Positions 18,778 through 45,360 of a stretch of DNA of 64,000 nt are shown piece by piece; position 1 is the stretch's first letter; every line of letters begins with the position of its first letter. The stretch is from Utricularia gibba (Eukaryota > Streptophyta > Magnoliopsida > Lamiales > Lentibulariaceae): positions 3,100,001 through 3,164,000 of the forward strand of contig NEEC01000002.1 in the NCBI GenBank assembly GCA_002189035.1, read 5' to 3'. The notes under the pieces are model-generated. The model saw only the letters and a program-made list of their open reading frames with translations. It was not told the DNA's origin and did no database searches. The position numbers and the translations under genes were made by a program.

Positions 18778-18882
18778 GCAGATTTCTGACAGATGTCGAT
18801 CTGTCGTCTGACGTTATCCCTCGGGATCTCATTTGGCAGCCTTTTAGGAACCGATTATATCCGACCGGTTTATCCCCTATCA
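18778..18882 (-). repeat. truncated 3' LTR of gypsy copy 1
   Basis: About 105 bases matching the end of the complete LTR at 28363-28467, including the terminal CCTATCA on the plus strand (LTR start TGATAGGGG in element sense). The remaining roughly 430 bases of this LTR are absent; left of 18778 the sequence is MULE-derived. Confidence 0.88.
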
Positions 18883-18894
18883 TTCAGCCCCTCT
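18883..18894 (-). other. polypurine tract
   Basis: Directly upstream of the 3' LTR in element sense the minus strand reads AGAGGGGCTGAA. It is a purine-rich tract in the position where plus-strand DNA synthesis is primed in LTR elements. The same text lies next to the 3' LTR of copy 2 at 33828-33839. Confidence 0.55.
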
Positions 18895-19103: not shown

Positions 19104-19111
19104 TATAAATA
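19104..19111 (+). promoter_or_regulatory. TATA box for the antisense gene of copy 1
   Basis: TATAAATA on the plus strand inside CATTATAAATATCCGC, about 280 bases before the ATG of the antisense gene. The same 16 bases occur at the equivalent place in copy 2 (TATA at 34048-34055), although surrounding sequence differs. That suggests a real promoter element reading against the retrotransposon. Confidence 0.5.
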
Positions 19112-19389
19112 TCCGCACCCCTTGTCATTTCTCCCCTTTGCTTTCTTCGTTCACTCACGAGATTCCAGCGCCCTTTGCACTCCGCCGTTCTTGTCGCCGT
19201 GTTATCCGCCGGAGATTACAGATTTCTCAGGTATCCGCTCCTTCTCCGTGTCTTTTTGCATCCCTACGGTAGCTTAACTCTCCTTTAGATCTTCGAGAAC
19301 TTTGATGGGTAGTTACCGCCCTCTTGAGTCTTTTTCCTTTCTGACTTCCGCCTCGTCCTAGGGTTTGGGCTTCTTTCGATTTTTCGAAA

Positions 19390-21642
19390 ATGGGTAGAAG
19401 ATCTAGTGAACTTGACATCCCATCTCTGTGCATTCGGTATTCGATTCCTGATGAATATCAGATTTCTCCTGCTCGGGATGCCGAAATCCCTTGGGGGATT
19501 GGCGAGGCCCCTCTGCCTCCATCCAGTCTTCCGATTCCATTAGCCTATTTCGAGAGCGGTTTACGCTTCCCACTCCATCCTTTAATAGTCCGCTTTCTCT
19601 CCACCTTTGCGATTCCACTTTACTGCCTCGCCCCGAATTCTATATTCTGCTTCACCACCTTCCTTTTCTATTCGGCCGGTATGGACCCGGTTATGACTCT
19701 GGTAGACTTCCTCCATCTCTTCAAGATTGCTGTGCGTAAAGCGAAGTCCCCGATGGATGGACGATCTCATTTTCGATTCCGCCGGTTTGAAGATAACCCC
19801 AACTTTGTCGTTAAAGCCCCCGATACCCATCATGATTGGTGGTCCTCTTTTTTTTGAGTAGCTCCTCCTTCGGGTTTTCGGTGGAACTTCCCAATCGATC
19901 CTTCAACTCCTTTCAGGGTTAAAATCTTCGGTGCGTATCGGTCTTCTTCCGAATCTCGCGAAGTTCTTTACGAGAGGCTCAGCCGAGGCTCAGTTCGGTA
20001 CGAATCTCGTGCCTTGATGTTCTCGGGTGCGTCGCTGAAAAAATCAGGTATTATCAGTCGCTCTCGAGACCCCCACTGGCCCGATATTATTTCTTCCGGT
20101 GGCACCGATTCGAGAAATCTTCATCTTAGCCCATCTCCATCCTTTCCTCTTGTTTCGGCCTCATCCCCGATTCCCCACCTGTTCAAACCGGGGCCCCAAG
20201 AAAAAGAAGAGGGTTAAGGCGATTGCGCATAAACCCTCAAAGAGGCAAAGAGGTAGTTGGGTTTAGCTTCCCCGAGTCTTAGAATCGGCATTATGTCTTA
20301 TTGCTTTTCCTACTTTCGTCTTCAGCTGAAGAGATGGCTCGAAGAAGCTCCCTAGAAGATTCGGTAATGGCGCAGTTCTCCGCCGAGATGCAGAGGATGT
20401 AGGAACCCGAGATGCCTTCCCCTGCACAGGTTTATCTTATTCCTGATGGCCCGCTGCTAAGGGTATTTGGTTCTAACTTTTTAACTTTCTTTCCAGGTCG
20501 ATTCGCCCTCAGCTCACTCAGATGTTGCTGGTCACCTCCCAGAGGGCCAAGTGGTTGAGGTTTTCGGGACTCGGGAACCAACTCCTTCTCCATCTGGAAA
20601 AGGAAAAGAAAGGCTCCCGCCTTCACCGATATCCGATAATGATCTGGCTCCGGACATTGGACGGATCTCGGCTGGGGCTTCTACTTCGGTCCCCCCTATG
20701 GACATAGGGGGGATTTCATCCCTCCGACCCGGGTGAGGGAGGATCCTGCCTTTCCCCCTTCTTCCTTCCCCTTAGGGCTACGAAAAGCCTTAGAAGAGGC
20801 CACTCCCAACCTTGTGGGAATTCAACCGAAGACTGTACTCAAAGGGATTTGGTAGGTATTCCCTCTTCCGTCTTCTTTTCTTCTTTTCTCTCTCAGGTAA
20901 GCAAATATATCTGATTCCTCGCTCGTTGATTTCATCATAGGCTTTGACCTTTGGATGGGGGATGGCCAAAGAGATGGGATCCCATTCTGAGGAGGTTTCT
21001 CGGCTTCAAGCTCAAATCATGGCTCAAGATGCCAAGATAAAGTCGTTAGGGGAAGAAGGGAGCGCATTGAGGTGCATACTCGGGAAGCGTACCCACCGAG
21101 AAGAGGAGTTGCAGACCCTGGTTAATGAAATGGGGAAGGCAATTGATGACGCCAACTCCGAGAAAGAAGGCTTCAAAGTGCAACTCGAGGAGACTGAGGC
21201 GGAGTTGAAACAAACCAAGGATCGCGTATCGGCCCTGGAAGCAGAGCTACACAACCAGGAGGTATCTCGCGGAAGACTTTTGGAGGATTTCGTGAACTCG
21301 GCCTGCTTTTCCGAATTATCGGATGTCTATGCTGGAGACTTAATCGGCCTCCTTCTATATCGCCAAAGACGACAATTCAGTCGGGAGTTTGGGCTTTCAA
21401 TTATGGATCCGCGATTCGACAGGATAAATCCCCTGACAAAGGATGAGAACATGCTAGACGTTATCGCAGATACGTTCCAGGCCCCGGAATTCGGGTTTGG
21501 AGCTGATCGGGAGCGGTTGATGGCGCTGATTCGGGCGAGGGTAGGGCGAGAGAATGATGCCAAATTGAGAGCAAGGATGGAACGTCATATCGGTTCCTCT
21601 ACCAATCCTCCTGTTAATCCCCGATCTCCTCCTGCACCTTAA
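19390..21642 (+). pseudogene. antisense gene of gypsy copy 1 (Transposase_28-like, coiled coil)
   Basis: Plus-strand gene lying between integrase and 3' LTR, opposite to gag-pol. By comparison with copy 2 it has four exons: 19390-20252, 20326-20429, 20497-20855, 20941-21642, with GT...AG limits that mostly match between the copies. Exon 1 opens MGRRSSELDIPSL and has a block like FESGLRFPLHPLI with LAPNSIFCF. This resembles the Pfam 'putative gypsy type transposon' domain (Transposase_28). Exon 4 holds a long coiled coil (EEVSRLQAQIMAQDAKIKSL onward) and a conserved C-terminal part with MDPRFDRINPLTKDENML. The function is unknown. Damage: TGA at 19855-19857 in exon 1, a TAG in exon 2, a frameshift before 20252 and in exon 3, and a TAG at the end of exon 3. 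Antisense ORFs in this position are known for Tat elements; their role is not settled. Confidence 0.7.
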
Positions 21643-22494
21643 TGACTTTTTTGACTTAGTGTATTTTCCCCCTGCTGTGGGGTTGCTTGAATATTTTTGA
21701 TATCCCGGTTCGGGATTTCCCTCTAATTTACACTCTTTTTTGCGCATCACTTTTGCCTTTGATGATATCATATTTCGGGGTAGCCCCCAGTCGGTTTGTT
21801 ATGTCTATTACGTACTTAGACTTGGAAGGTTCGCCTATGCTTTTGTGACCCGGGGGAGGGTGTCTCTTCGCCAACCCTTTGGTTTGGGCTTTTTGATTCC
21901 GGTTTGCCTTAGTATTTCCTCATGTGGGCTGAACCGCCGCTAGGGAAGTAGGTCGGAACCCCTCATGGTTGAGCGACCTCCCCAATCCGAAAGGGCCCTC
22001 TTCTGGCCGAATCCCATTGTTTTGAAAATGGGTGGATTTGCTTTGGGTGCTCCTGTCGTCTCGAGATTTCGACAGTAAGGTCAATACTTAAGGGCTTTTC
22101 AGGGCTTACGCGTGCGGTTTACGGGAACCGGTGCCCGAATTGTACCAGGGCTTATCCTTGCTACTGATGCCTAGGTTGATGGGCCACATATATATATCGG
22201 GGGAGACCCCGAGTTAATTTGCTGTATCCCACGGAGGACGCCGATTTAGAAGATTCGCCTGGGCTTATGTTACTTGGCCAGAGCTTTAGATCTTTGATGG
22301 TTTGCCTGGGCTTACGCGATTCGGCCAGGGCTTGTGTTTTGTTTTCCCATCTCCATTTCGGAGGAATTTATAGGTGCATGACTGTTTGGGGGAAGATAAT
22401 GCCGAATTCTGCAACAGAGATTGATATTGAGTCGGTTAAGCGTAGAACTTACTTAGATGCGATGCATTCCACGACCTTGGGAGTTCCACGCCAT
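21643..22494. other. spacer between antisense gene and pol of copy 1
   Basis: Non-coding stretch between the convergent 3' ends of the antisense gene and the integrase frame. It contains several loose copies of a CAGGGCTTA-like phrase (for example near 22090-22160 and 22260-22335). The same layout and similar text occur in copy 2 at 36570-37348, so it belongs to the element. Confidence 0.6.
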
Positions 22495-24364
22495 CTAATT
22501 GTTCCAGCGATATGCTCCTTTTCCGATTACCCTTGAAATCCGATAAGGGCCTTCCCAGTTGCGGTCTAATTTCCCGACGTATATTTGTGGTTGGATGCTC
22601 CGGAGCACCAAATCTCCCTCGGAGAATTCCCTTGGGGATATCGAGTTGTTGTAACTCTTCTCCGTTCTTCTCTGATAAGCCTCTAGTCGGCTATAGATGC
22701 TTCGTTGCTTCTCTTCCAACAGCTCCAATTCCAGTTTTCGGAGTTCAGTATTCTCTTCTTCGTTATAATGCTCTACCCGGTAGCTCTTCAAGGTCAGTTC
22801 GATAGGGCATATGGCTTCTGAACCGTAAACCAATAAGAATGGGGACTCTTCCGTGGTGGTTCGAGGGTAGTGCGATATGACCACAGTACCTCATCTTAGC
22901 GATCTGCCCACGACCCCCCAAAATCTTCGAGCTTAGTCTTCATACCTAGTCGGAGCGTTCGGTTCGTTACCTCTGTGAGGCCATTGCTCTGCGGGTGATA
23001 TACCGATGTGAAGTTGTGCTTGACCGAATACTTATCCAGGAATGCATCCATTTTTCCTCCGGCGAATTGAGTTCCGTTATCAGTCACTAGTTCTTGAGGG
23101 ATTCCGAACCGGATGAAGATGTTTTTCCACAGAAATCGGATAACGGTCTCCTCTGAGATCTTTGCCACGGCCTCAGCCTCTACCCACTTAGAAAAATACT
23201 CGACACCCACGATGACGAATTTCCTTTGACCCGAGGTGTGGGGTAAAGGCCCCATTATATCCACCCCCCATCGGTCGAAGGGGCAGGAGAGTGGAGAGAG
23301 GTTAGTTTGCTTACTGGTTTTCTCGGTATACTTGCATGGTATTGGCACACTTTGCACTTCTTCACTATATTGGTAATATCCTGCTTCATAGTTGGCCAGT
23401 AGTACCCGGTTCTTAGAACTTTCCGGCATAAGGATCGTATTCCAATATGGCTGCCGCATTCCCCCTCATGTAGATCGGTTATGAGTTCTTGAGAATGCTT
23501 TGCCCCGATGCACCTCAATAAGGGTCCATCTAAGGATTTGCGATAGAGAATTCCATTCACTAACGTATACCTCTTCACTCTAGTCTCTAACTGTCGGGCA
23601 TTCGGCTTATCAGATGAGGTTTTCCCATTTTGTAAATACCGGATGTAGGGCATCGTCCAGTCATCAAGGGGACTCAGTTGTGGAGAGATATCGTTTCCCG
23701 GTTGCTGTGTGATATGATTCACGGCTCGTAGGATCACCGAAGGTTGGTCCCGCAACCGAATTGTCACACTTCCTTCCCTTAACTCGTGAAACCCTGCTGC
23801 GAATCGGGTGAGGCTATCTGCGGACCCATTTTTTTCACGTGCTACGTGCGACAGGGTGAACTCCTTGAAGGTTTTAGCCAAGTCCTTCACCTGGACACGA
23901 TACAGAGCCATGAGGGAGTCATGAGTTTCGTATTCTCCCGAAAACTGCCCTTGCAAAAGTCGCGAATCGGTGTAAACGTCGAGTTCTGCCACTCCCAGCT
24001 CCTTGGCAATTTTCATTCCCTCAATCAGGGCTTCATATTCGGCCACATTGTTGGAGGCAGGGAATAAGAATTTCACCGTAATATAAATATGCTCTCCTTC
24101 TCGGGTCTTAATGTCTATTCCTCCTCCGGCGCCATTGTATGTTGAGCCATCCACATGCATAGCCCATCGGTCGTTGGCTTCCATGAAACGGTCTATAGGC
24201 CTGGTCATTTCGACCACAAAATCAGCAAGAGGTTGGGCCTTGATTGCTGTTCTCGACTTAAACTCAATATCCATTGTACTTAATTCAACTGCCCATTTGG
24301 CAACCCTTCCGGAAATCTCTGGACGAGACAGGATGTTCTTTAGAGGCTGATTGGTGAATACCAC
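22495..24364 (-). pseudogene. gypsy copy 1 RNase H and integrase
   Basis: Three overlapping minus-strand frames. The first (24364-23255) has the end of the RT-linked RNase H, then an extra RNase H-type domain with MHVDGSTYNGAGGG and ALIEGMKIAKELG, VYTDSR. It continues into the integrase zinc finger ending CKVCQYH. After a frameshift near 23280, 23459-22896 carries the integrase core DRWGVDIMGP, TDNGTQF, and NGLTEVTNR, giving the D, D, E catalytic residues. A further frame (22884-22495) has the integrase C-terminal part with GDLVLRSIQP and WEGPYRI. Integrase joins element cDNA to host DNA. The triad is intact but the frame is broken at least twice, so no full enzyme can be made. Confidence 0.88.
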
Positions 24365-24376
24365 AATGTGCGGATC

Positions 24377-25370
24377 TTAGAAATATGACCTCAATTTGGT
24401 GGCTGCCATCTTCAGAGCCAAGATGAATTTCTCTGTCACCATATAGTGGGTTTCGGCCGGTAACAAAACTTTGCTTACATAATACACCGGCAAGTGATTA
24501 TTTTCCGAGATGGTTGTCAAGACTGCGCTGACTGCGACGGGCGATATAGACAGATATAGTCCTAAGGGCTCCCCTACTTTCGGAGCCACAAGAAGCGGGG
24601 GTGATGAGAGGTATTCCTTGAGTTTCTCAAAAGCAATCTGGCAATCCTCGTTCCATTCTAAAGCGCTTCCTTTTCGCAAGACCTTGAAGAAGGATGCCGA
24701 CTTATCGGCTGACCGAGATATGAAACGGCTGAGGGCAGCCAATTTACCCGTGAGGCTCTGGTATTCCTTGATTGTCCTCGGGGGTTGCATTTCGCATATT
24801 GCCTTAATCTTCTCGGAGTCAGCCTCGATTCCTCTCTCCGATACGTAATACCCAAGGAATTTTCCACTTTGCACCCCGAAACAACATTTCAATGGGTTGA
24901 GCTTTAACCCGTATGACCGACATAAAGAGAAACACGAATCCAAATACGCTAAATGTTCTTCTTCATTCATAGATTTTACGATCATATCGCCCACATACAC
25001 CTCCATTGAGGTATCGATTTCAGAAGAGAATATTTTATTTACCAACCTCTGGTAAGTCGCCCAGCATTCTTCAATCCGAAAGGCATTGCCACGTAGCAGT
25101 AAACTCCATCCTTAGTTTTCGGTTGGTCTTTCTCGGCACGAAAATTTGATGATACCCTGAATAGGCATCCATGGTGCTCAGAAATCGGGATCCGGCAATG
25201 GCGTCCACTAGCTTGTCGATCTTTGGCAAAGGATAAGGGTCCCTTTCGCAGCAGGCGTTAAGGTCGGTGAAGTCAATGCACATCCTCCATTTTCCCCCGG
25301 GCTTCGGGACGACGACCAGGTTGGCTACCCATTCGGAGTACTGGATCTCCTTCACATAACCAGCTTCCAA
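24377..25370 (-). pseudogene. gypsy copy 1 reverse transcriptase
   Basis: The minus-strand frame 25370-25071 has KPGGKWRMCIDFTDLNACC, DPYPLPKID and MDAYSGYHQI. After a frameshift, 25045-24377 continues with the palm domain and thumb, including LKLNPLKCCFGV and KFLGYYVSERGI. The catalytic box reads YVGD instead of YVDD: the first catalytic aspartate is glycine. A stop after KLRSYF separates it from the RNase H frame, whose text continues in register at 24364. Copy 2 has aspartate at the mutated position, so the change is specific to this copy. Confidence 0.88.
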
Positions 25371-25430
25371 GAGCTCTCTTGTTTTTTCTTTGATAATTCG
25401 GCACTTTTCCTCTGAGAAATGTCGTTGCTT

Positions 25431-26552
25431 CTACCAAATCAGTTTTGCCCCCAGGTAGGTATCAATGTGATGTTCGGCGACGGATCGATCGATGCCTACA
25501 AAATCCGCAGCAGTCCAGGCAAAAATATCGGTGTTCTTCATCAAAAGTTCAACTAACCTTTTCTCGAATCTAGCGTCTAGATTGGCACCGATGCGGGTGG
25601 CTTTCTGCGCATCTTCTGGTATTAGTTGCACCGACTTGTACCCTATTGGTTCTATTGCTTGTCTAGGGGGTTCCTTTTCTACCATCATTACTCTCGACTT
25701 TTTCGCGCAGGGGTCCCGACAAGAAGATACATAACAGGACCGGGCGGTGGTTTGGTCGATACCCATCGTGCAAATGCCCTTCGATGTTGGGAATTTGATT
25801 TTCAAATGCACAGTGGAGGGTAACATACCGAATTGGTTGATGCCACGTCGCCCGAGGATGATGTTGTACGAGATCTCTGAATCTAGGATTAAGAATTCCA
25901 ACCTTTCGGTTCGGCTCCGCCCTGCCGCTTCGAATGTTACGGGCAGGGTTATTTTCCTGATAGTTTGCATGGCCCGCTGGTCGAATGCGTACAACTCCAT
26001 GCGCACATGGCGAATATTTCCCTCGTTAGATGACGCCAGTAACTCGGCCACTTCCTTCTTCATGATGTTGCACGAGGATCCTTGATCGATAAGAATCCTC
26101 CTTACCTTGGTGCTCCCACATATTCCTGACACCACAAGGGGCTCATCTCTCGCGGCTGGGCCAACCGGGACGTCTCTGCTGGAGAAGCTGATCTCTTCCT
26201 TTTCCCAAGCAGCTTTCTCAGTCGGATCATTTCCGATTTCGAAAACTTCTCCTCTTCTGACTTCATTCAAATATCTCTTCCATTCCTTTCCGAACACATC
26301 CATCTCGGTTCCTCCGGATATCATATGGATTTCCTTAATATAGGGGGGACTACCCTGCATTTGATGGGCACTCCGTGAACTTTCCGATATGTCTTGTCCT
26401 TCTCCAAGATTCGGTTCCCTGTTGGTTCGCGAGTTCGCCATCCCTGGTTTTGGAGGGAATTTCGGATATTGGTTCTCCTCGTTCCCCGTTCGCTCGTTAC
26501 GTCCTCTTTTCCGGTCCGTCATTGATGCGGGGTTCCGCATCGCGTTGTTCAT
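25431..26552 (-). pseudogene. gypsy copy 1 protease region
   Basis: One open minus-strand frame of 373 codons. The retropepsin-type site reads RRILIDQGSSCNIM, where the common DTG/DSG is DQG; copy 2 has the same residues, so this is the family form. The end of the frame carries the connection to RT with DIFAWTAADFVGIDRSVAEH, equivalent to the DFAWS..DMPGI segment of related polyproteins. The enzyme would cut the gag-pol polyprotein. A stop just after LIW breaks the link to RT. Confidence 0.82.
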
Positions 26553-26555
26553 CCC

Positions 26556-27852
26556 TCAACCAGCATGATACTGCTCGATCATCCTCTTCATCAGTCGGCA
26601 GTGGGCAGTATCATGCCCGGTGGTCTTGTGTATTTTGCAATAGGCATCTGTTCTGGTTGGTTCCACCTGATATACTTCACGGCGCTTATTCGGCCTGGGT
26701 CCCCGGTTAAGTTGGGTCTCCTGCTGTGGGACTGGATGAATCTCCACGCGGCTTTTCATCTCGGCCCTGAGGTCGTCGTCCACTCGGATGTACTTCATGA
26801 TTTTCCTTAGCAATTCTCCGAGATTCTTTGGTGGGGACTTCGATAGACTCTGTCCCAATTTCGACGTTCCTAAGGCCCGCTTCATTATTTCCACCCTTTC
26901 TTTCAAATCCAATTGGACATCCTGCGCCAAGCAGTTGAATCGATCGATGAATCTTCGCAAGCTCTCTTTTTGGTGGTCGTACCGAATAGAGTATAGTGAT
27001 GCCTTCGAAGGTGGAGCTTCAATGTTAACAACGTATCGGGTAGTGAAGAGCAGTATTAATTCCCGATAAGATGCCACGCTGCATGGTTCCAACTGTTTAA
27101 ACCAAGTCTTCGCTCCTTTCTGGAGCGAGCAAGCAAACAGCTTACACTTCATGGCCTCTGAATGTCGAACTGTGGACATCCTCATATCGAAGTCGGTTAC
27201 ATGCGATATGGGGTCCCCTTTTCCGTCATACGTGGGTAATCCGTCCGGGACCCTGAATCCTCTCTCGGGCTCTTCTCCGACTAAATCGTCCGAGAAAGAA
27301 TCAAAACGCAGCGTTGTGGTTCCAGCTGCTCCCTCAACTCCACTCTTCAAGGCCAAAGCAATATCGGCCAAAACATCTCCTCTTCCAATGGATACGTTCT
27401 GATCGAAAACGTCCCTGAAGCCTCTATCCTCTCTTCTTCCTACCAACGTCCGCTTGTCGATAAACCTTTTCCTTTCGCGGATCTGGTCTAACTCTCTTTT
27501 CAACTCTTCTTCTCTTTCTTCCAAGATTTTGCTAGTCATGTTCTCCCTATCAGTTCCTGGCTCATAACGACTTGGTTGCGCCTCTTTCTCCGCTGCATTT
27601 CCTCCTCGGTTTCGGATTCAGTCTCCATATCTGGGGGTACTCCGGAATAAGAGGTTGCTTCCTCGTTCGTGGTGCGGTTTCAGGTGTTCTCTCATGGGTG
27701 TTGGAGTTGAGACCTGAAGGTGCCCGGAGGTCGGTAAGGATTTCCGTTAGCAGGGCCTTCAGTTGGTCCCTGCTAGTGATCATAAGGCCGGGGTCTCGAG
27801 CGTCGGCACTTCCGTCATGAGCCGGGTCGGTGGCTGTGCTATTTTCCGCCAT
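26556..27852 (-). pseudogene. gypsy copy 1 gag
   Basis: The N-terminal frame opens at 27852 with MAENSTATDPAHDG and ends at 27562. After a frameshift the main gag frame runs 27539-26556. It has the retrotransposon gag signature CSLQKGAKTWFKQLEP and FTTRY, a conserved ESLRRFIDRFNCLAQDV segment, and a zinc-knuckle-like YCKIHKTTGHDTAHC. Gag packages the element RNA. In copy 2 the N-terminal and main parts are joined in one frame, which shows the break is secondary. Confidence 0.85.
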
Positions 27853-27930: not shown

Positions 27931-28467
27931 TGTTGTGGGTGAAATCGGTGTCCGGTGGGAGGCCGGTTTCAGGTAATAGGCGCGGTCGGGAATGTCGCAC
28001 CTAGTCACGTTCTTCACGGTTGGTGCGATTAGAATAAGGGTGAGCAAGGATTTTTTACGTGGAAACCGCCGGAGAGCGGAAAAACCACGGAGCTGCCGGA
28101 GCTCGCCGGAAAAGAGTTTCACTAGATGGAGGTCGCGAAATGGAGAATACAACTTGAAGAAATCTTTTGTTTTTTTTGAGTCCAACCCGGATTTCATCAT
28201 AATTCCTCCTATTTATAGGAGAGCTCACTCTGACCGAATTCTGGTGTCTGCAAATATCGGTTGCTTTCTGCTCCTGCTATACAATCTCGCTTTTCAGATA
28301 TCGGCCACCTGTCATGCCGTAATTCGGCCGCTTTTCAAACTACGTCATATGGCCATACTTGTCAGATTTCTGACAGATGTCGATCTGTCGTCTGGCGTTA
28401 TCCCCTTGGGATCTCATTTGGCAGCCTTTTAGGAACCGATTATATCCGACCGGTTTATCCCCTATCA
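27931..28467 (-). repeat. complete 5' LTR of gypsy copy 1 with TATA box
   Basis: The LTR is 537 bases with TG...CA ends (plus strand TGTTG...TATCA). A TATAAATA box lies on the minus strand at 28217-28210, suited to drive the genomic RNA toward lower coordinates. It is homologous to the 494-base LTR of copy 2. The right-hand neighbour of the element starts at 28468. Confidence 0.88.
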
Positions 28468-30649: not shown

Positions 30650-32452
30650 GTTGATGAACTATGCTTTTCCATGCTAGAAGTGGGCAAATTCTCCCACATC
30701 GTATAATAATTGAGCATAAAGGATGCTATACAGCAACATCATGGTATAGGAGTAATGGGGTGAGGAAGAGTTGAGTGTGAGGGGGGAGGGGGGAGGGGGG
30801 AATCAATTTGTTATTGAGGGGATAGACGTGCTTATATAGTCATTAGGAGTAATTTAAAGATCAATTTATCCAATGAAACATGGTGTTGTGTTGTTTGGTT
30901 ATTTCCATGTTTCATTATTTTGTGTATTTAGAACATTGTGATCAACCCTATACTAAATGCTAAGACATTTCCTAAATTGGGTTTTATGTAGGTAATTCTT
31001 GTTGTTTTATTTATACTTTTATTTATCACCTATGCATTTAAGCAAACAATCATATAGTTTATAGATTCTAAAACCAGTTTGTAAGAGAGAGTTACAAAGT
31101 TTTGGGGTGCACCAATAGGTTGCACCAACCACTGATAACAAAATCTCATGGATGAGGTTCATGGGATGCACAAACTCACTACAATTAATTATTCTCTACG
31201 ATTCATGCATGATTCTCAATGGCTTGTGGCAATACAAGAAGAAATGAGATCATTGTGGAAGAATAATACCAATGAGTTGATTTTTTTACCAACGGAGGAA
31301 GACACTTGACAACAAGTTGATTTTCAAAATGAAACAAAACTCAAATGCAAGTGTGCGATATAAAGCTAGAAACAAAGACCCTCAAGTGATAATAACTCAA
31401 AAAATTCAACAAGATCCAAATTTTATCACAATTCACTAGAAATCCGAATAGAAACGAGCACAAGAATTAATAAGTATGATCAATCCTTCAAAAGTATCAA
31501 ACATGAATAGTCTGGCTACTTAAAAGGAGTTGCTAAACTTAGCTTATGGTTTGGCTCAATAAAATTTCAATCGATGTGTATGTTGACTCAAACCTTATAG
31601 AGGATATAGACACAAAACGGTCTTCTATTGGTGTGATCACCATATTAGATGGAGTTAGAGTTTCATATACATATACACTTAAGACGAGTGTTGAATTATA
31701 CTCTATTAAAGCAAAATATATGATCCTTGTAGAAACTTATAAAGAGGCCTTGTGGTTGGATATGTTTCTCAAAGAACTTAGTTTTCATTTACAAGATCAA
31801 AAGGTGCATGTGTATTGCAATAATCAAAGTGCACTAATGCTAAGTAAACATGCTGTGTATCATTCTAGGACAAAACATATTCACATTCACTATCGTTGGC
31901 TATGAGATTTGCTAAAGGAATGAAGATTTGACTAGGTGAAGGTCACGACTGAGTATAATATTTCTGATTTAATAACCGAAGTTCTGTCCTAATCTAGATA
32001 TATTATGTTATTACGAGGGATAGGATTAATGTTGTAAGGTTAAGCTCAATAACACTTCTAGTCAAAAGGAGTGATTATTGATTAAACATGCTTATTCAAG
32101 TTAGGAGTGGGGTAGTTCCTCCTATATTTTACAACGGGGTTGAGTAAGAGTGCTATGTAGCAACATCTTTGTGTGGGAGAAATAGAGTGAGTAGGGTTCA
32201 GTGTTGGGGAGAGAGGAGGGGAGGAAATTTGATTATTTTTCAAGGGATAATCTTACAGATATGTTGTTGGGCATAGTAATAAATTGATTTAGTGAAATAT
32301 AGTGTTATTTGATTTTGTTGTTTCTTTATTTTAGTGTATTATGTACTCACAACATAGTGATCATCTTCATTCTCAATGTTAGGAGGTTTTCCACATTGGA
32401 TTTTACCTAGGTGATTGTTGTTGTTTCATTTCTACTTTTATTCATCACCTAA
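30650..32452 (+). mobile_element. old internally deleted Ty1/copia element
   Basis: Two diverged LTRs, about 30650-31040 and 32075-32452, bracket a plus-strand copia remnant. Shared blocks include a GCTAT..AGCAACATC segment, a G/A-rich tract, and a final third ending TTATTCATCACC/TTATTTATCACC. Many substitutions and indels separate the LTRs, so the insertion is old. The interior is only about 1 kb and retains two pieces of RT/RNase H, so most of gag-pol is deleted. LTR limits are approximate. Confidence 0.7.
31190..32000 (+). pseudogene. copia RT start and RNase H remnant
   Basis: Near 31215-31300 the translation reads VAIQEEMRSLWKNNTNELIFLP, cut here to its core EEMRSLWKNNTNELIFLP, which matches the AMxEEMxSLxxNxTWELVxLP entry of copia RT. 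After a large deletion, 31546-31905 encodes the copia RNase H: YVDSNLIEDIDTKRSSIG, then the central KAKYMILVETYKEALWL, then VYCNNQSALMLSKH and HSRTKHIHIHYRWL. The family pattern is DADYAGDxDxRRSTTG, AEYMAL..A.KEAIWL, CDSQSAIHLAKN, RTKHIDxRYHF. A stop follows in place of the next residue. All catalytic RT motifs are missing. Confidence 0.8.
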
Positions 32453-33531: not shown

Positions 33532-33827
33532 ATACAAGTTTTTTGAATCCTCTGGCGCTCGTCATAATTCCTTCTATTTATAGGAGATCTGACCGAACCC
33601 TGACATCTGCAAATACCGGCTGCTTTCTGCAACTGCTATACGATCTCGCTTTTCAGATATCGGCCGCCTGTTATGCCATAATTCGGCCGCTTTCCAAACT
33701 GTGTCATATGGCCCTGCCTATCAGATTTCTGACAGATATCGGTCTATCGACTGGCATTATCCCCTCAGAGTCCCCTTTTGGCAGCCTTTTAGGAACCGGT
33801 TACCCTTGACCGATTTACCCCCTACCA
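33532..33827 (-). repeat. truncated 3' LTR of gypsy copy 2
   Basis: Matches 44030-44305 of the complete LTR. It retains an intact TATAAATA on the minus strand (33582-33575), whereas the 5' LTR carries a mutated TACAAATA at the same place. Left of 33532 the sequence is unrelated. It also retains a stretch of about 26 bases, near 33695-33722, that is missing from the 5' LTR. Confidence 0.87.
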
Positions 33828-34047
33828 TTCAGCCCCTCTGATTTGCCGATATTGGCCCTTCCAGGGTAAGTCGGGGAATCAGAATCACTATAATGCCAAC
33901 TTTTGAGATACCGCCTTCCATGCATGAGCCATAAACCGCTTTGTACCGATATCTCCGCCACGCGTCGGTTCGTAAATATGCCACGTTTTTTCCTGCCCAT
34001 CCGGATACCTCAAACGTCGCGTCGCTTCGTCTCCTTAGTCCTTCCAT

Positions 34048-34055
34048 TATAAATA
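34048..34055 (+). promoter_or_regulatory. TATA box for the antisense gene of copy 2
   Basis: TATAAATA on the plus strand in the same CATTATAAATATCCGC context as in copy 1, about 280 bases before the ATG at 34337. Conservation in position and sequence between the two copies supports function as a promoter for the antisense gene. Confidence 0.5.
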
Positions 34056-34336
34056 TCCGCTCCCCTTGTCATCTCTCCTCTTTGCATTCTTCGTTCGCTT
34101 TCGAGATTCTAGCGCTCTCTGAACTCCGCCGTGCTTGCCACCGTGTTATCCGCCGGAGATTACAGATTTTCCAGGTATCCACTCCTTCTCTGTAACTTTT
34201 TGCATCCCTACGGTTGCTTAATTCCCTTTTAGGTCTTTAGGAATTTTTCACGGGTAGCTATCGCCTTTCTGAGTCGTTTACCCTCTCTAACTTCTGCCTT
34301 GTTCTAGGGTTTGGAGCTTCTTTCGATTTTTCGAAA

Positions 34337-36569
34337 ATGGGTAGGAGATCTAGTGAACTTAATATCCCCTCTCTTCGCATTCGGTACTCGATCCCTACTG
34401 AGTATCAACTTTCTCCTACAAGGGATGCCGAAATCCCTTGGGGGATAGGCGAGGACCCCTTGCCTCCATTCAGTCTTCTGGTTCCGCTTGCCTATTTCAA
34501 GAGTGGTTTACGCTTCCCACTCCATTCTTTAATAGTCCGTTTTCTCTACACCTTTGCGATTCCGCTTTATTGCCTCGCCCCGAATTCCATATTCTGCTTC
34601 ACTACCTTCCTCTTCTATTCGGCCGGTATGGATCCGGTTATGACTCTGGTGGATTTCCTCCATCTCTTCAAGGTTGCCGTACGTAAAGCGAAGTCACCGA
34701 TGGATGGTCAATCCCATTTTCAATTCTGCCGATTTGAAGATAACCCCAACTTTGTTGTTAAAGCCCCCATACCCACCATGATTGGTGGTCTTCTTTCGTT
34801 TGAATAGCTCCCCCTTTGGGTTTTCGGTGGAACTTCCCAGTCGATCCCCCAACTCCTTTCAGGATCAAAATCTTTGGTGCGTATCGGTCTTCTTCCGAAT
34901 CTCGTGAAGCCCTTTACGAGAGGCTTAGTCGAGGCTCAGTTCAGTATGAGTCTCGTGCCTTGATGTTCTTGGGTGAGTCGCTGAAAAGATCTGGTATTAT
35001 CGGTCGTTCTCGGGACCCCCATTGGCCCGATATCATTCCTTTCGACGGCACCGATTCGAGAAACCTTCCTCTTAGCCCCTGTCCATCCTTACCTCTTGTT
35101 TCGGCTTCACCCCGATCCCCCACCTGTTCAAACCGGGGCCCCAAGAAAAAGAAGAGGGTTAAAGCAGTTGCGCACAAACCCTCAAAGAGGCAAAGAGGTA
35201 GTCGGGTTCAGCTTTCCCGAGTTTCAGAATCGGCGCTAAGCCTTATTGCTTTTCCTACTTTCGTTTTCAGTTGAAGAGATGGCTCGAAGAAACTCCCTGG
35301 AAGATTCGGTGATGGCACGGTTCTCTACCGAGATGTAGAGGATGCAGGAACCCGAGGAGCCCTCCCTTGCACCAGTCTGTCTCCTATTTAACAGTTACCG
35401 CGAATTCCCAATTATAACCTTTTTTCGGTTTTTCTTTTAGGCTGATATGATTGGAGCTCAGCTGGATGCCGCCGATCCTTCCTTGGGGGAAGATCAAGTA
35501 GTAGAAGTCTCCGAGATCCGGGAGTTGACTCCCCGTCCTTCAGCCTGGAAAGGGAAAGAGAAACTTCCTCCATCACCCGATCTCAGCGATACTCCCATTC
35601 CTGATGCAAGATTCTTTTCGGCTGGTGCTTCAACATCGGCTCCCCCAATCGGGTTATAGAGGGATTCTGCCCTCACAGAAGTAAGGGACAACCCGGTGCT
35701 TCCTCTATCCTCAGTTCCAGCTGAACTAAGGAGAATCCTGGAGGAGCTATGTCTAATACCTCGGATGTTCGGCCGGAAACGGTACTTGAAGGGATCTGGC
35801 AGGTACGTATCCCGTTTCCTTCTCTAAATTCTAAGTAGTCGGTGCTTGACTTGGATTATTCTTTCAGGCTTTGACTCTTGGGTGGGGAATGGTTAGAGAG
35901 ATTGGTTCTCAATCGGAGGCAGTCTCTCGGCTTCAAGCCTAGGTTGTGGCTTAGAATGCCCAGATAAAGTTGTTGGAGGAGGAGGGGAGTTCGCTGAAGA
36001 CCGTTTTAGGGAAACGCACCCGCTAGGAGGATGAATTGCGGAATGTGATCGAGGAAATGGGAAAGGCGGTTGACGATGCTAAATCGGAGAGGGAGGGCTT
36101 CAAAGTCCGATTTGAGGAGGCAGAAGCGGAGTTAGAGCATGCCAGGGGCCGCATTTCAGCACTGGAGGCCGAATTACTTGATCGAATTGCATCTCGGCAG
36201 GGACTTCTGGATGACTTTGTCAACTCTTCCTGTTTTGCCGAACTCTCCGATATCTATGCAGGAGACTTATTCGGCTTACTTCTATACCGTCAGAGACGAT
36301 AGTTCTGTCGGGAATTTGGGCTTTCAATCATGGATCCGCGCTTCGACAGGATAAACCCCTTGACGAAGGATGAGAACATGCTTGATGTTATCGCAGATAC
36401 TTTCCAGGCCTTGGAGTATGGGTTCGAAGCTGATAGGGAGCGGCTGATCGCGCTGATTCGGGCGAGGATAGGGAGAGAGAATGACGCCAAGTTGAGAGCC
36501 AGGATGGAGCGACATACCGGTTCCTCTGCCAATCCTCCCATTAATCCCCCATCTCCTCCTGCACTTTAG
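34337..36569 (+). pseudogene. antisense gene of gypsy copy 2 (Transposase_28-like, coiled coil)
   Basis: Plus-strand counterpart of the gene in copy 1. Exons by comparison: 34337-35197 (with a frame change near 34800), 35271-about 35374, 35441-35802, 35868-36569. Exon 1 opens MGRRSSELNIPSL and keeps LRFPLHSLIV and LAPNSIFCF. Near its end comes a basic PKKKKRVKAVAHKPSKRQR stretch that looks like a nuclear localisation signal. Exon 3 holds QVVEVSEIRELTPRPS and a FFSAGASTSAPP tract also found in copy 1. Exon 4 holds the coiled coil and the MDPRFDRINPLTKDENML block. Damage: frame change after exon 1's domain, TAG in exon 2 at a different codon from copy 1, several stops in exon 4, including one after RRQRR. 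The function is not known. Confidence 0.68.
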
Positions 36570-43811: not shown

Positions 43812-44305
43812 TGTTACGGGTAAAATCGGTATCTGGTGGGAGGTTGATTTAAGGTGATAGGTGCGGTCGGGGATCTCGCGCTTATTCACGTTATTCACAG
43901 TTAGTTCAATTGAAGTAAAAATGGGCAAAGATTTTTACGTGGAAACCGCCGGAAAGCGGAAAAACCACGGAGCTACCGGAGTTCGCCAGAAAAGGTTTTC
44001 ACTCGATGGAGGTGGTGAAGAAGAGAATACAAGTTTTTTGAATCCTCTGGCGCTCGTCATAATTCCTTCTATTTGTAGGAGGGCTCAATCTGACCGAACC
44101 CTGACATCTGCAAATACGGGTTGCTTTCTGCAACTGCTATACGATCTCGCTTTTCAGATATCGGCCGCTTGTTATGCCGTAATTCGGCCGCTTGTTATGT
44201 CAGATTTCTGACAGATATCGGTCTATCGACTGACATTATCCCCTCAAAGTCCCCTTTTGGCAGCCTTTTAGGAACCGGTTACCCTTGACCGATTTACCCC
44301 TACCA
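43812..44305 (-). repeat. complete 5' LTR of gypsy copy 2
   Basis: 494 bases with TG...CA ends (plus strand TGTTACGGG...CCTACCA). The TATA box of the 3' LTR copy is changed here to TACAAATA (about 44069-44076, minus strand). About 26 bases between the two GGCCGCTT repeats are deleted. The promoter is therefore probably weakened. Confidence 0.87.
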
Positions 44306-45360
44306 ATCTTGAAAGTCATTTTGGAAAATATGGTACACAAATTTCTTTTTATTTCTTTAAAGAACTATTTAAATTAATCTAAGAAAATTAAAATATTTAG
44401 AATATTATTTTAAAGCACAAACTTTTTGAAACTATATTGAGAACTTGTTTTCTACAGCGTCACTCCTGTTATAAAGATGTGAACATAAATAGTTGTATGA
44501 TGTTATTGAAATTTAATCATTTTCTCATTAGGTTGGATAACATTAGAGTGTAACTATAAATTTGATTTGTGATGGAAAATGCCTTTTTTTTTTTGTAAAC
44601 ATATTTCTCAATAATATTAAATGTTGCACCAACATAAAAGGAGCATAAAATTATATATTCTATTTTGCCAAAAAGGTTTTTGAAAATGGAGGAAATGAAG
44701 GGTAGAATTGATTTGTGGACAAAAAAATTCTTTCTTGCACAAAATAAAGAAAAAAGAACATCTAGCAGAAACTCGTTAAAAAAATGTTCGTGATGTTGAT
44801 TTTTCAAACTGGTTTCTTGTAAGTAAATACAAAGGAAAAAATATTTGCAACTTCTTGACAACTATTATCACCAATAAAGTAGAATAGGTTTATCATGTTA
44901 ATAATGCTACAAATTTAAATAATCCTCTATATGGATAGGGATAAGGACTTGTGAACAAAGTTATTAAATTCATTTAATAAGAGATTACCAAGGCTTTGAG
45001 TTTCCAAGGGAATATGATGATACACAAAAGGTTAATTTGGTAGATTTTAAAGAGTTTATGGATAATTCACTCATCCCATATTTGAATTACTTGTTTTTGA
45101 GCCTATTCTATTTCTTAGTTTTGCATTTTTATATGATGAATTGCCCAAATGTATTTCTCATAAGTGATCACCCAATTTTACCTCCACTCTCACCTTGATC
45201 TTTTTTCATAGTCAAGTTCACTAAAAATGATATTCATTTAATCGTTCATGGATTAATCTGCTTTTGGAAGTGAAAGAAAATATCAAGAGCTATACATTTT
45301 AGATTCTACTTTAATTCTAAAATTTTGAGCATTTATAGTCATGTATAGCAAAATTTACAA
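44306..45360. other. no gene recognised
   Basis: AT-rich intergenic DNA. A minus-strand frame of 114 codons (44861-44517) is low-complexity, rich in Phe, Tyr and Lys, and shows no domain; it is most likely chance. Confidence 0.5.

What the first reader, a model, noticed from the sequence alone, without database searches (positions are those of the whole stretch)
19104..21642. Antisense, promoter-bearing, intron-containing gene inside a gypsy retrotransposon
Between integrase and 3' LTR, on the strand opposite gag-pol, both gypsy copies keep a gene with the same conserved TATA context, an ATG about 280 bases later, and four exon-like blocks with GT...AG limits at matching places. Coding similarity resumes across each presumed intron (for example KRQR to AEEMARR, GIWQ to ALTFGWGM). 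Introns on this strand would not be spliced from the genomic RNA made from the other strand, so they survive reverse transcription. Antisense ORFs are known in the Tat lineage; a spliced structure with its own promoter is the inference made here.
Basis: partly seen in the sequence, partly recalled or inferred. Interest (0 to 1): 0.75.

Follow-up and report, generated by a model that had tools for sequence, protein, structure and literature searches.

The report
Spliced antisense gene inside plant retrotransposon
A family of plant retrotransposons carries, backwards between its integrase and its end repeat, an accessory protein gene cut up by introns; conservation across dozens of copies says this gene is really spliced and kept by selection, although the two copies in this window are dead, and the introns survive copying because the element's own RNA is made from the opposite strand.

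Summary
Both Ty3/gypsy copies carry, convergent with pol, the same four-exon gene with GT...AG introns (copy 1: 19390-21642; copy 2: 34337-36569), and both are broken by stops and frameshifts. All four exons show codon-position-3 excess and dN/dS of about 0.1-0.4, like gag-pol (0.14-0.20). Introns show no codon pattern and drift at about the exons' silent rate, while GT/AG stay. Relatives at about 35-60% protein identity keep introns 1 and 3 at the same positions with mostly unrelated intron bodies. No spliced retrocopies were found. The gene is convergent with pol at 63 of 72 integrase loci. The protein is the known TRP28 (PF04195) accessory protein of the Retand/Tat lineage. Its antisense ORF is published; an own antisense promoter and nuclear location are known for Grande gene23. 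The multi-intron structure was not found in the literature I could read, and would join the TRP28 and coiled-coil ORFs into one gene of about 678 codons. No RNA data were available. Verdict: real, a new variant of a known kind; molecular function inferred only.

The parts
18779..18883 (-). Remnant of the 3' LTR of copy 1 (gag-pol on - strand); on the + strand it ends ...CCCCTATCA; 97% identical to the 5' LTR end at 28363-28467
   Evidence: blastn
19104..19111 (+). TATAAATA box of the antisense gene, copy 1, about 220 bp inside the LTR edge, 286 bp before the ATG
19231..19361 (+). Probable leader (5' UTR) intron, CAG|GTATC ... CCTAG|GGTTT, copy 1
   Evidence: donor GT in 34 of 37 copies, acceptor AG in 30 of 37
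19390..20252 (+). Exon 1, copy 1: TRP28 domain (PF04195) and, at the end, basic NLS-like stretch; broken by a TGA at 19855 and a frameshift
20253..20325 (+). Intron 1, copy 1 (73 nt, phase 1)
20326..20429 (+). Exon 2, copy 1
20430..20496 (+). Intron 2, copy 1 (67 nt, phase 0)
20497..20855 (+). Exon 3, copy 1: Pro/Ser-rich linker, least constrained
20856..20940 (+). Intron 3, copy 1 (85 nt, phase 0)
20941..21642 (+). Exon 4, copy 1: about 110-residue helix predicted, probably coiled coil, then a conserved C-terminal helical part; open frame to stop 21640-21642
33532..33830 (-). Partial 3' LTR of copy 2 (88% to its 5' LTR near 44027-44308)
34048..34055 (+). TATAAATA box, copy 2
34175..34307 (+). 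Probable leader intron, copy 2
34337..35197 (+). Exon 1, copy 2 (frameshifted)
35198..35270 (+). Intron 1, copy 2
35271..35374 (+). Exon 2, copy 2
35375..35440 (+). Intron 2, copy 2
35441..35802 (+). Exon 3, copy 2
35803..35867 (+). Intron 3, copy 2
35868..36569 (+). Exon 4, copy 2 (in-frame stops)
22495..27539 (-). gag-pol of copy 1 (gag, RT, two RNase H domains, integrase), convergent with the antisense gene

Best explanation
It is an accessory protein gene of a Retand-like (Tat clade) Ty3/gypsy element, lying antisense between integrase and the 3' LTR. The best-supported mechanism is as follows. An internal promoter just inside the 3' LTR drives a transcript running convergently towards pol. 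The pre-mRNA loses three short U-rich introns in the coding part (about 73, 66 and 65-85 nt, phases 1, 0, 0) and probably one leader intron. It is then translated into a nuclear protein of about 678 residues: TRP28 domain, basic NLS-like stretch, Pro/Ser-rich linker, long coiled coil, conserved helical tail. The introns lie on the strand opposite the genomic RNA, so they are not splice-competent in that RNA and are copied intact at each retrotransposition. Shown here: exon-intron anatomy, purifying selection on exons, drift of introns with conserved splice sites and phase, deep conservation of intron positions, fixed convergent placement beside pol. Inferred: transcription, actual splicing, nuclear action as a DNA-binding dimer that regulates the element or guides its integration (about 0.45 for this last role).
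For: Codon-position divergence is 2-3 fold higher at position 3 in exons 1 and 4 and clearly higher in exons 2 and 3 (B-A pairs: E1 .088/.075/.212, E4 .217/.159/.442), but flat in introns 2 and 3. dN/dS in exons is mostly 0.1-0.4, as for gag, PR, RH and INT (0.14-0.20) between the two window copies. The exons were labelled in the spliced frame; 73- and 65-nt introns shift the frame. GT/AG kept where intron interiors diverged. In relatives with about 35-60% amino-acid identity, introns 1 and 3 sit at the same place, with lengths of 62-85 nt and mostly unrelated cores. Introns are T-rich (0.40-0.44 against 0.19-0.31 in exons) and carry more indels (14 against 6 per 100 nt). 63 of 72 integrase loci have exon 4 convergent on the opposite strand, none on the same strand. 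No spliced junctions in the genome. Exon 1 matches PF04195 (over the cut-off in relatives). Grande gene23 is transcribed antisense from its own promoter and its protein is nuclear (PMC7264820).
Against: No RNA evidence was available. Both window copies are pseudogenes and none of the copies examined was found fully intact. In L047 exons 3-4 do not align or show constraint against the other groups. In some copies intron 2 lacks AG. Intron 1 in A-B pairs diverges somewhat less than exon 1 third positions. The promoter call rests on a TATA box in a region that is conserved anyway. PF04195 scores for the two window proteins lie just below the curated cut-off (24.2 and 21.7 against 26.2 bits). Function is untested.
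Confidence: 0.9

Rival explanations
1. Separate unspliced antisense ORFs: a TRP28 ORF and a coiled-coil ORF, each translated on its own; the gaps are non-coding spacers and GT/AG at the edges are coincidence. This is how the published surveys list them.
For: Vicient 2025 lists antisense ORFs separately and mentions no introns. Exon 1 alone carries the TRP28 domain and an NLS-like end, and in several distant relatives intron 1 begins GGTAGTTAG, an immediate stop if retained.
Against: Exon 2 (104 nt) and exon 3 are constrained in the frame that joins them to exon 1 and exon 4. GT/AG, phase and position persist while intron bodies become unrelated. Spacers of steady 62-85 nt are not expected of drifting non-coding DNA.
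Confidence: 0.06
2. The antisense RNA, not the protein, is the working product: it pairs with genomic RNA and yields siRNA or interferes with reverse transcription, as with Ty1 antisense RNA.
For: Convergent antisense transcription could allow dsRNA silencing (review PMC7264820; Ty1 antisense RNA in PMC12786077).
Against: An RNA-only function does not predict codon-position selection at gag-pol strength. It may act in addition.
Confidence: 0.03
3. A nested host gene or a hitch-hiking insertion that happens to lie in these two copies.
For: Introns are typical of host genes, and the origin of TRP28 is unknown.
Against: 63 of 72 integrase loci of the family have it in the same convergent position, and TRP28 antisense ORFs occur in 97% of recent Retand clusters in monocots and eudicots.
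Confidence: 0.01

Closest known systems
TRP28 (Transposase_28, PF04195) antisense ORF of Retand-lineage Ty3/gypsy elements (Vicient 2025, PMC11963269)
   Same: Position between pol and 3' LTR, antisense strand, TRP28 domain, near-universal presence in the lineage, Smc-like antisense ORFs in the same region
   Different: The survey counts ORFs without stops and has no mention of introns or splicing in its main text. Here the TRP28 ORF and the coiled-coil ORF are exons of one gene with three conserved coding introns and probably a leader intron.
Grande gene23 of maize (Gomez-Orte et al. 2013, known to me through PMC7264820)
   Same: Antisense accessory gene in a long 3' internal region, own upstream promoter, nuclear protein
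   Different: Splicing is not mentioned in the review; I could not read the primary paper. No sequence comparison was made.
HBZ of HTLV-1 (antisense accessory gene)
   Same: Antisense gene at the 3' end of a retroelement with a nuclear product; HBZ also has a spliced transcript (from my own knowledge)
   Different: The HTLV antisense promoter is in the 3' LTR and HBZ is a bZIP protein; here the promoter appears internal and the protein is TRP28 plus coiled coil. Analogy only, no homology tested.
Ogre gag-pol intron and EVADE copia intron
   Same: Spliceosomal introns in plant LTR retrotransposons
   Different: Those are sense-strand introns kept by partial splicing of the element's transcript; here the introns are antisense and should not be removable from genomic RNA at all.

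Membership tests
Tat clade of non-chromovirus Ty3/gypsy elements | gag-PR-RT-RH-INT order on one strand, with a second RNase H domain after the RT-linked one (defining feature recalled from memory) | tested here: met
   Retrotrans_gag, RVT_1, RT_RNaseH_2/RT_RNaseH, then RVT_3/RNase_H, Integrase_H2C2, rve; no Pfam hit for the protease ORF
Tat clade of non-chromovirus Ty3/gypsy elements | No chromodomain at the integrase end | tested here: met
   No chromodomain hit; only a weak SH3_Tf2-1 match
Retand lineage | Antisense ORF with TRP28 domain between pol and 3' LTR | tested here: met
   PF04195 E 3.9e-5 and 2.4e-4 in the window copies, slightly under the curated cut-off; the genome search lists 129 matches at E<=0.001, including the window copy, and three distant relatives score 37-44 bits
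Retand lineage | RT places the element with Retand references in a tree | not tested
[quoted passage not shown] not required) | tested here: not met
   None found in this region at score 40
Spliceosomal intron-containing gene | GT...AG ends, conserved phase, exon constraint against intron drift, position kept in distant relatives | tested here: met
Spliceosomal intron-containing gene | Spliced transcript observed | not testable with these tools
   No RNA data
Antisense gene with its own promoter (as Grande gene23) | Promoter upstream of the gene and antisense transcript | tested here: inconclusive
   TATAAATA at a fixed distance in nearly all copies, in a region of 65-85% identity; no transcription data

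The most novel reading that the evidence does not exclude
A whole plant retrotransposon lineage carries a multi-intron, spliceosome-dependent nuclear gene on the strand opposite its genome. The orientation itself preserves the introns. The introns mean the gene entered the element as DNA (a host gene or DNA transposon gene) and not from a spliced mRNA or an RNA virus, and published TRP28 and Smc-like antisense ORFs are exons of one protein.
Probability: 0.5. Interest if true: 0.72.

Novelty: new variant of a known kind. Interest (0 to 1): 0.62.

Why it matters
Surveys search these elements for uninterrupted ORFs and so report fragments; an exon model turns them into one complete protein and makes its function testable. 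A December 2025 review still says plant LTR elements generally lack introns apart from Ogre and EVADE. Antisense placement is a natural solution to keeping introns through reverse transcription. Conserved introns also bear on the open question of where TRP28 came from: they favour capture of a piece of nuclear DNA over mRNA transduction or an RNA virus, unless the introns were gained later.

Tried and rejected
Spliced retrocopies: two exon-junction patterns with 3 mismatches gave no match in the assembly; neutral for splicing, but it fits intact passage of introns. TRP28 families at 24-30% identity (L049-L078): codon periodicity after exon 1 was too weak to place introns in family 2, so I make no claim for them. 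AlphaFold of exon 1 from a single sequence was unusable (pLDDT 41); exon 4 gave only a long helix with confidence, so no fold search was run. Tandem repeats: none in the region. Poly(A) hexamers: none of seven forms found in the first 1 kb after the stop of copy 1. Sense-strand coding as the source of constraint: no overlapping - strand ORF of 100 aa or more except 105 aa at 21454-21771. Primary papers on Grande gene23 and on extra ORFs in Tat elements are not held.

Full report
Setting. The window comes from a plant genome (DELLA-type and beta-1,3-glucanase-like genes lie in the window, named by eye from the sequences). Two Ty3/gypsy copies lie on the - strand. Copy 1 has gag-pol at about 22.5-27.5 kb and copy 2 at about 37.3-43.6 kb. 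Pfam finds gag, RT, the RT-linked RNase H, a second RNase H (RVT_3/RNase_H), the integrase zinc finger and the integrase core, and no chromodomain. This is the domain set of the Tat clade as I know it. Remnants of the 3' LTRs end at about 18883 and 33830.

Anatomy. On the + strand, between integrase and 3' LTR, both copies have TATAAATA (19104; 34048), an ATG 286-289 bases later, and four exons with three GT...AG introns. Exon 1 holds the TRP28 domain PF04195. In copies with an open exon 1 it ends in a basic stretch, PKKKKRVKAVAHKPSKRQR, directly before the intron 1 donor. Exon 3 is a Pro/Ser-rich linker. Exon 4 is predicted as a helix of about 110 residues, probably coiled coil (pLDDT above 90 over most of it), plus a low-confidence helical tail. 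In L026, another genomic copy, the four exons splice into a frame of about 678 codons with one stop, with phases 1, 0, 0. Both window copies are dead: copy 1 has a TGA at 19855 and frame errors in exons 1 and 3, and copy 2 has frame errors or stops in each exon.

A genome search listed 71 matching pieces. I fetched 40 places, oriented and aligned them, and used 36 copies in three groups: A (window copy 1 type), B (window copy 2 type and relatives) and D (diverged). Divergence by codon position in the spliced frame, A against B: exon 1 .088/.075/.212, exon 2 .115/.126/.228, exon 3 .359/.328/.606, exon 4 .217/.159/.442. Introns 2 and 3 were flat (.444/.428/.525.533/.512/.535). Against D: exon 1 .282/.199/.520, intron 1 .451/.437/.399. 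Pairwise dN/dS is mostly 0.1-0.3 in exons 1, 2 and 4, and 0.2-0.4 in exon 3. L047 is an exception in exons 3-4, where it does not align meaningfully. Gag, PR, RH and INT between the two window copies give 0.14-0.20, so the antisense gene is under the same order of constraint as the element's own enzymes. Introns also carry more T (0.40-0.44 against 0.19-0.31) and more indels (14 against 6 distinct indels per 100 nt) than exons.

Splice sites. Donor GT is present in 34, 32 and 34 of 37 copies, and acceptor AG in 34, 29 and 32 of 37. In groups A and D, where introns 2 and 3 have diverged from L026 (interior dinucleotide identity 0.25 and 0.21), GT stays in 9/10 and 9/10 and AG in 7/10 and 9/10. 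In twelve more distant loci (L079-L090, about 30-70% protein identity), where the boundaries could be read, introns 1 and 3 lie at the same place, with a few decayed sites (L085 donor 1, L088 and L079 acceptor 1, L090 acceptor 3). Intron 3 cores of distant groups align no better than shuffled sequence (z near 0 to 1.9 in most pairs) although lengths stay at 62-85 nt. Intron 1 cores keep some similarity between nearer groups. This combination (position, phase, length class and end dinucleotides conserved, body not) is the signature of spliceosomal introns and not of spacers.

A leader intron. Between TATA and ATG there is a donor CAG|GTATC (GT in 34 of 37) and an acceptor CTAG|GGTTT (AG in 30 of 37), at 19231-19361 and 34175-34307. 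Similar donors are visible upstream of the ATG in L079, L083 and L088. In group D the acceptor is displaced, so I call this probable, not shown.

Placement. At 63 of 72 integrase loci the nearest exon 4 match lies within 7 kb on the opposite strand, always convergent, and never on the same strand. The lists are of the best-scored candidates only. Two exon-junction patterns found no spliced copy in 100 Mb. The gene therefore travels with its introns inside the element.

Promoter. A TATAAATA-like box is present at the same place in almost all copies and in L083 and L088. Since the region is 65-85% conserved in general, the box alone is not strong evidence. For Grande gene23, an own upstream promoter, ubiquitous antisense transcription and a nuclear protein are reported (PMC7264820).

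Exchange of the 3' half. Between the two window copies, the promoter to exon 2 and the 3' UTR are 82-89% identical, but intron 2, exon 3 and intron 3 only 44-56% and the first part of exon 4 70%. Silent divergence is .27-.29 in exons 1-2.76 in exon 3 and .53 in exon 4, against .31-.40 in gag-pol. Raised silent change points to a different genealogy, so the 3' half was probably exchanged by recombination, with an edge near exon 2/intron 2. L011 and L014 are further mosaics.

Known and new. Antisense TRP28 ORFs are a hallmark of the Retand lineage (97% of recent clusters; PMC11963269), and Neumann et al. 2019 list the domain in 23% of Retand elements (PMC6317226). Vicient 2025 has no occurrence of 'intron' or 'splicing' in its main text, and Vicient and Casacuberta 2020 call for a look at antisense and spliced transcripts. 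A 2025 review names only Ogre and EVADE as notable plant LTR elements with introns. So the gene is known as an ORF; the spliced structure is, as far as I could read, not described. The primary papers on Grande, on Retand of Silene and on Tat extra ORFs could not be read and could hold a mention.

Mechanism, with marks. Shown: exon-intron structure under selection, convergent placement, persistence of introns. Follows from established knowledge: GT-AG introns on the complement are not recognised in the genomic RNA, so they pass through reverse transcription. Inferred: Pol II transcription from the internal TATA, splicing in the nucleus, a nuclear DNA-binding and probably dimeric protein that regulates the element or guides its cDNA. 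I put about 0.9 on the spliced, protein-coding antisense gene and about 0.45 on a nuclear DNA-binding regulatory role.

Noticed in passing
20430-21250 against 35375-36180: The 3' half of the antisense gene differs far more between the two copies than the rest of the element, including at silent sites; exons 3-4 look exchanged between subfamilies by recombination near intron 2.
   Followed up: partly
   Followed up: yes
31546-31905: A + strand ORF that looks like a Ty1/copia RNase H fragment lies between the two gypsy copies (recognised by eye).
   Followed up: no
18779 and 33532: Both 3' LTRs are cut short on their outer side, with unrelated sequence joined on.
   Followed up: no
L049-L078: The genome holds many other TRP28 families at 24-30% identity to exon 1 (129 matches listed in all), some with very similar copies (over 90%); their exon structure was not resolved.
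   Followed up: partly
20253-20264 and homologues in L079-L089: The first bases of intron 1 (GTAGTTAGGTT) are more conserved than the rest; in several distant families retaining the intron would stop translation at once, giving a TRP28-only protein.
   Followed up: no
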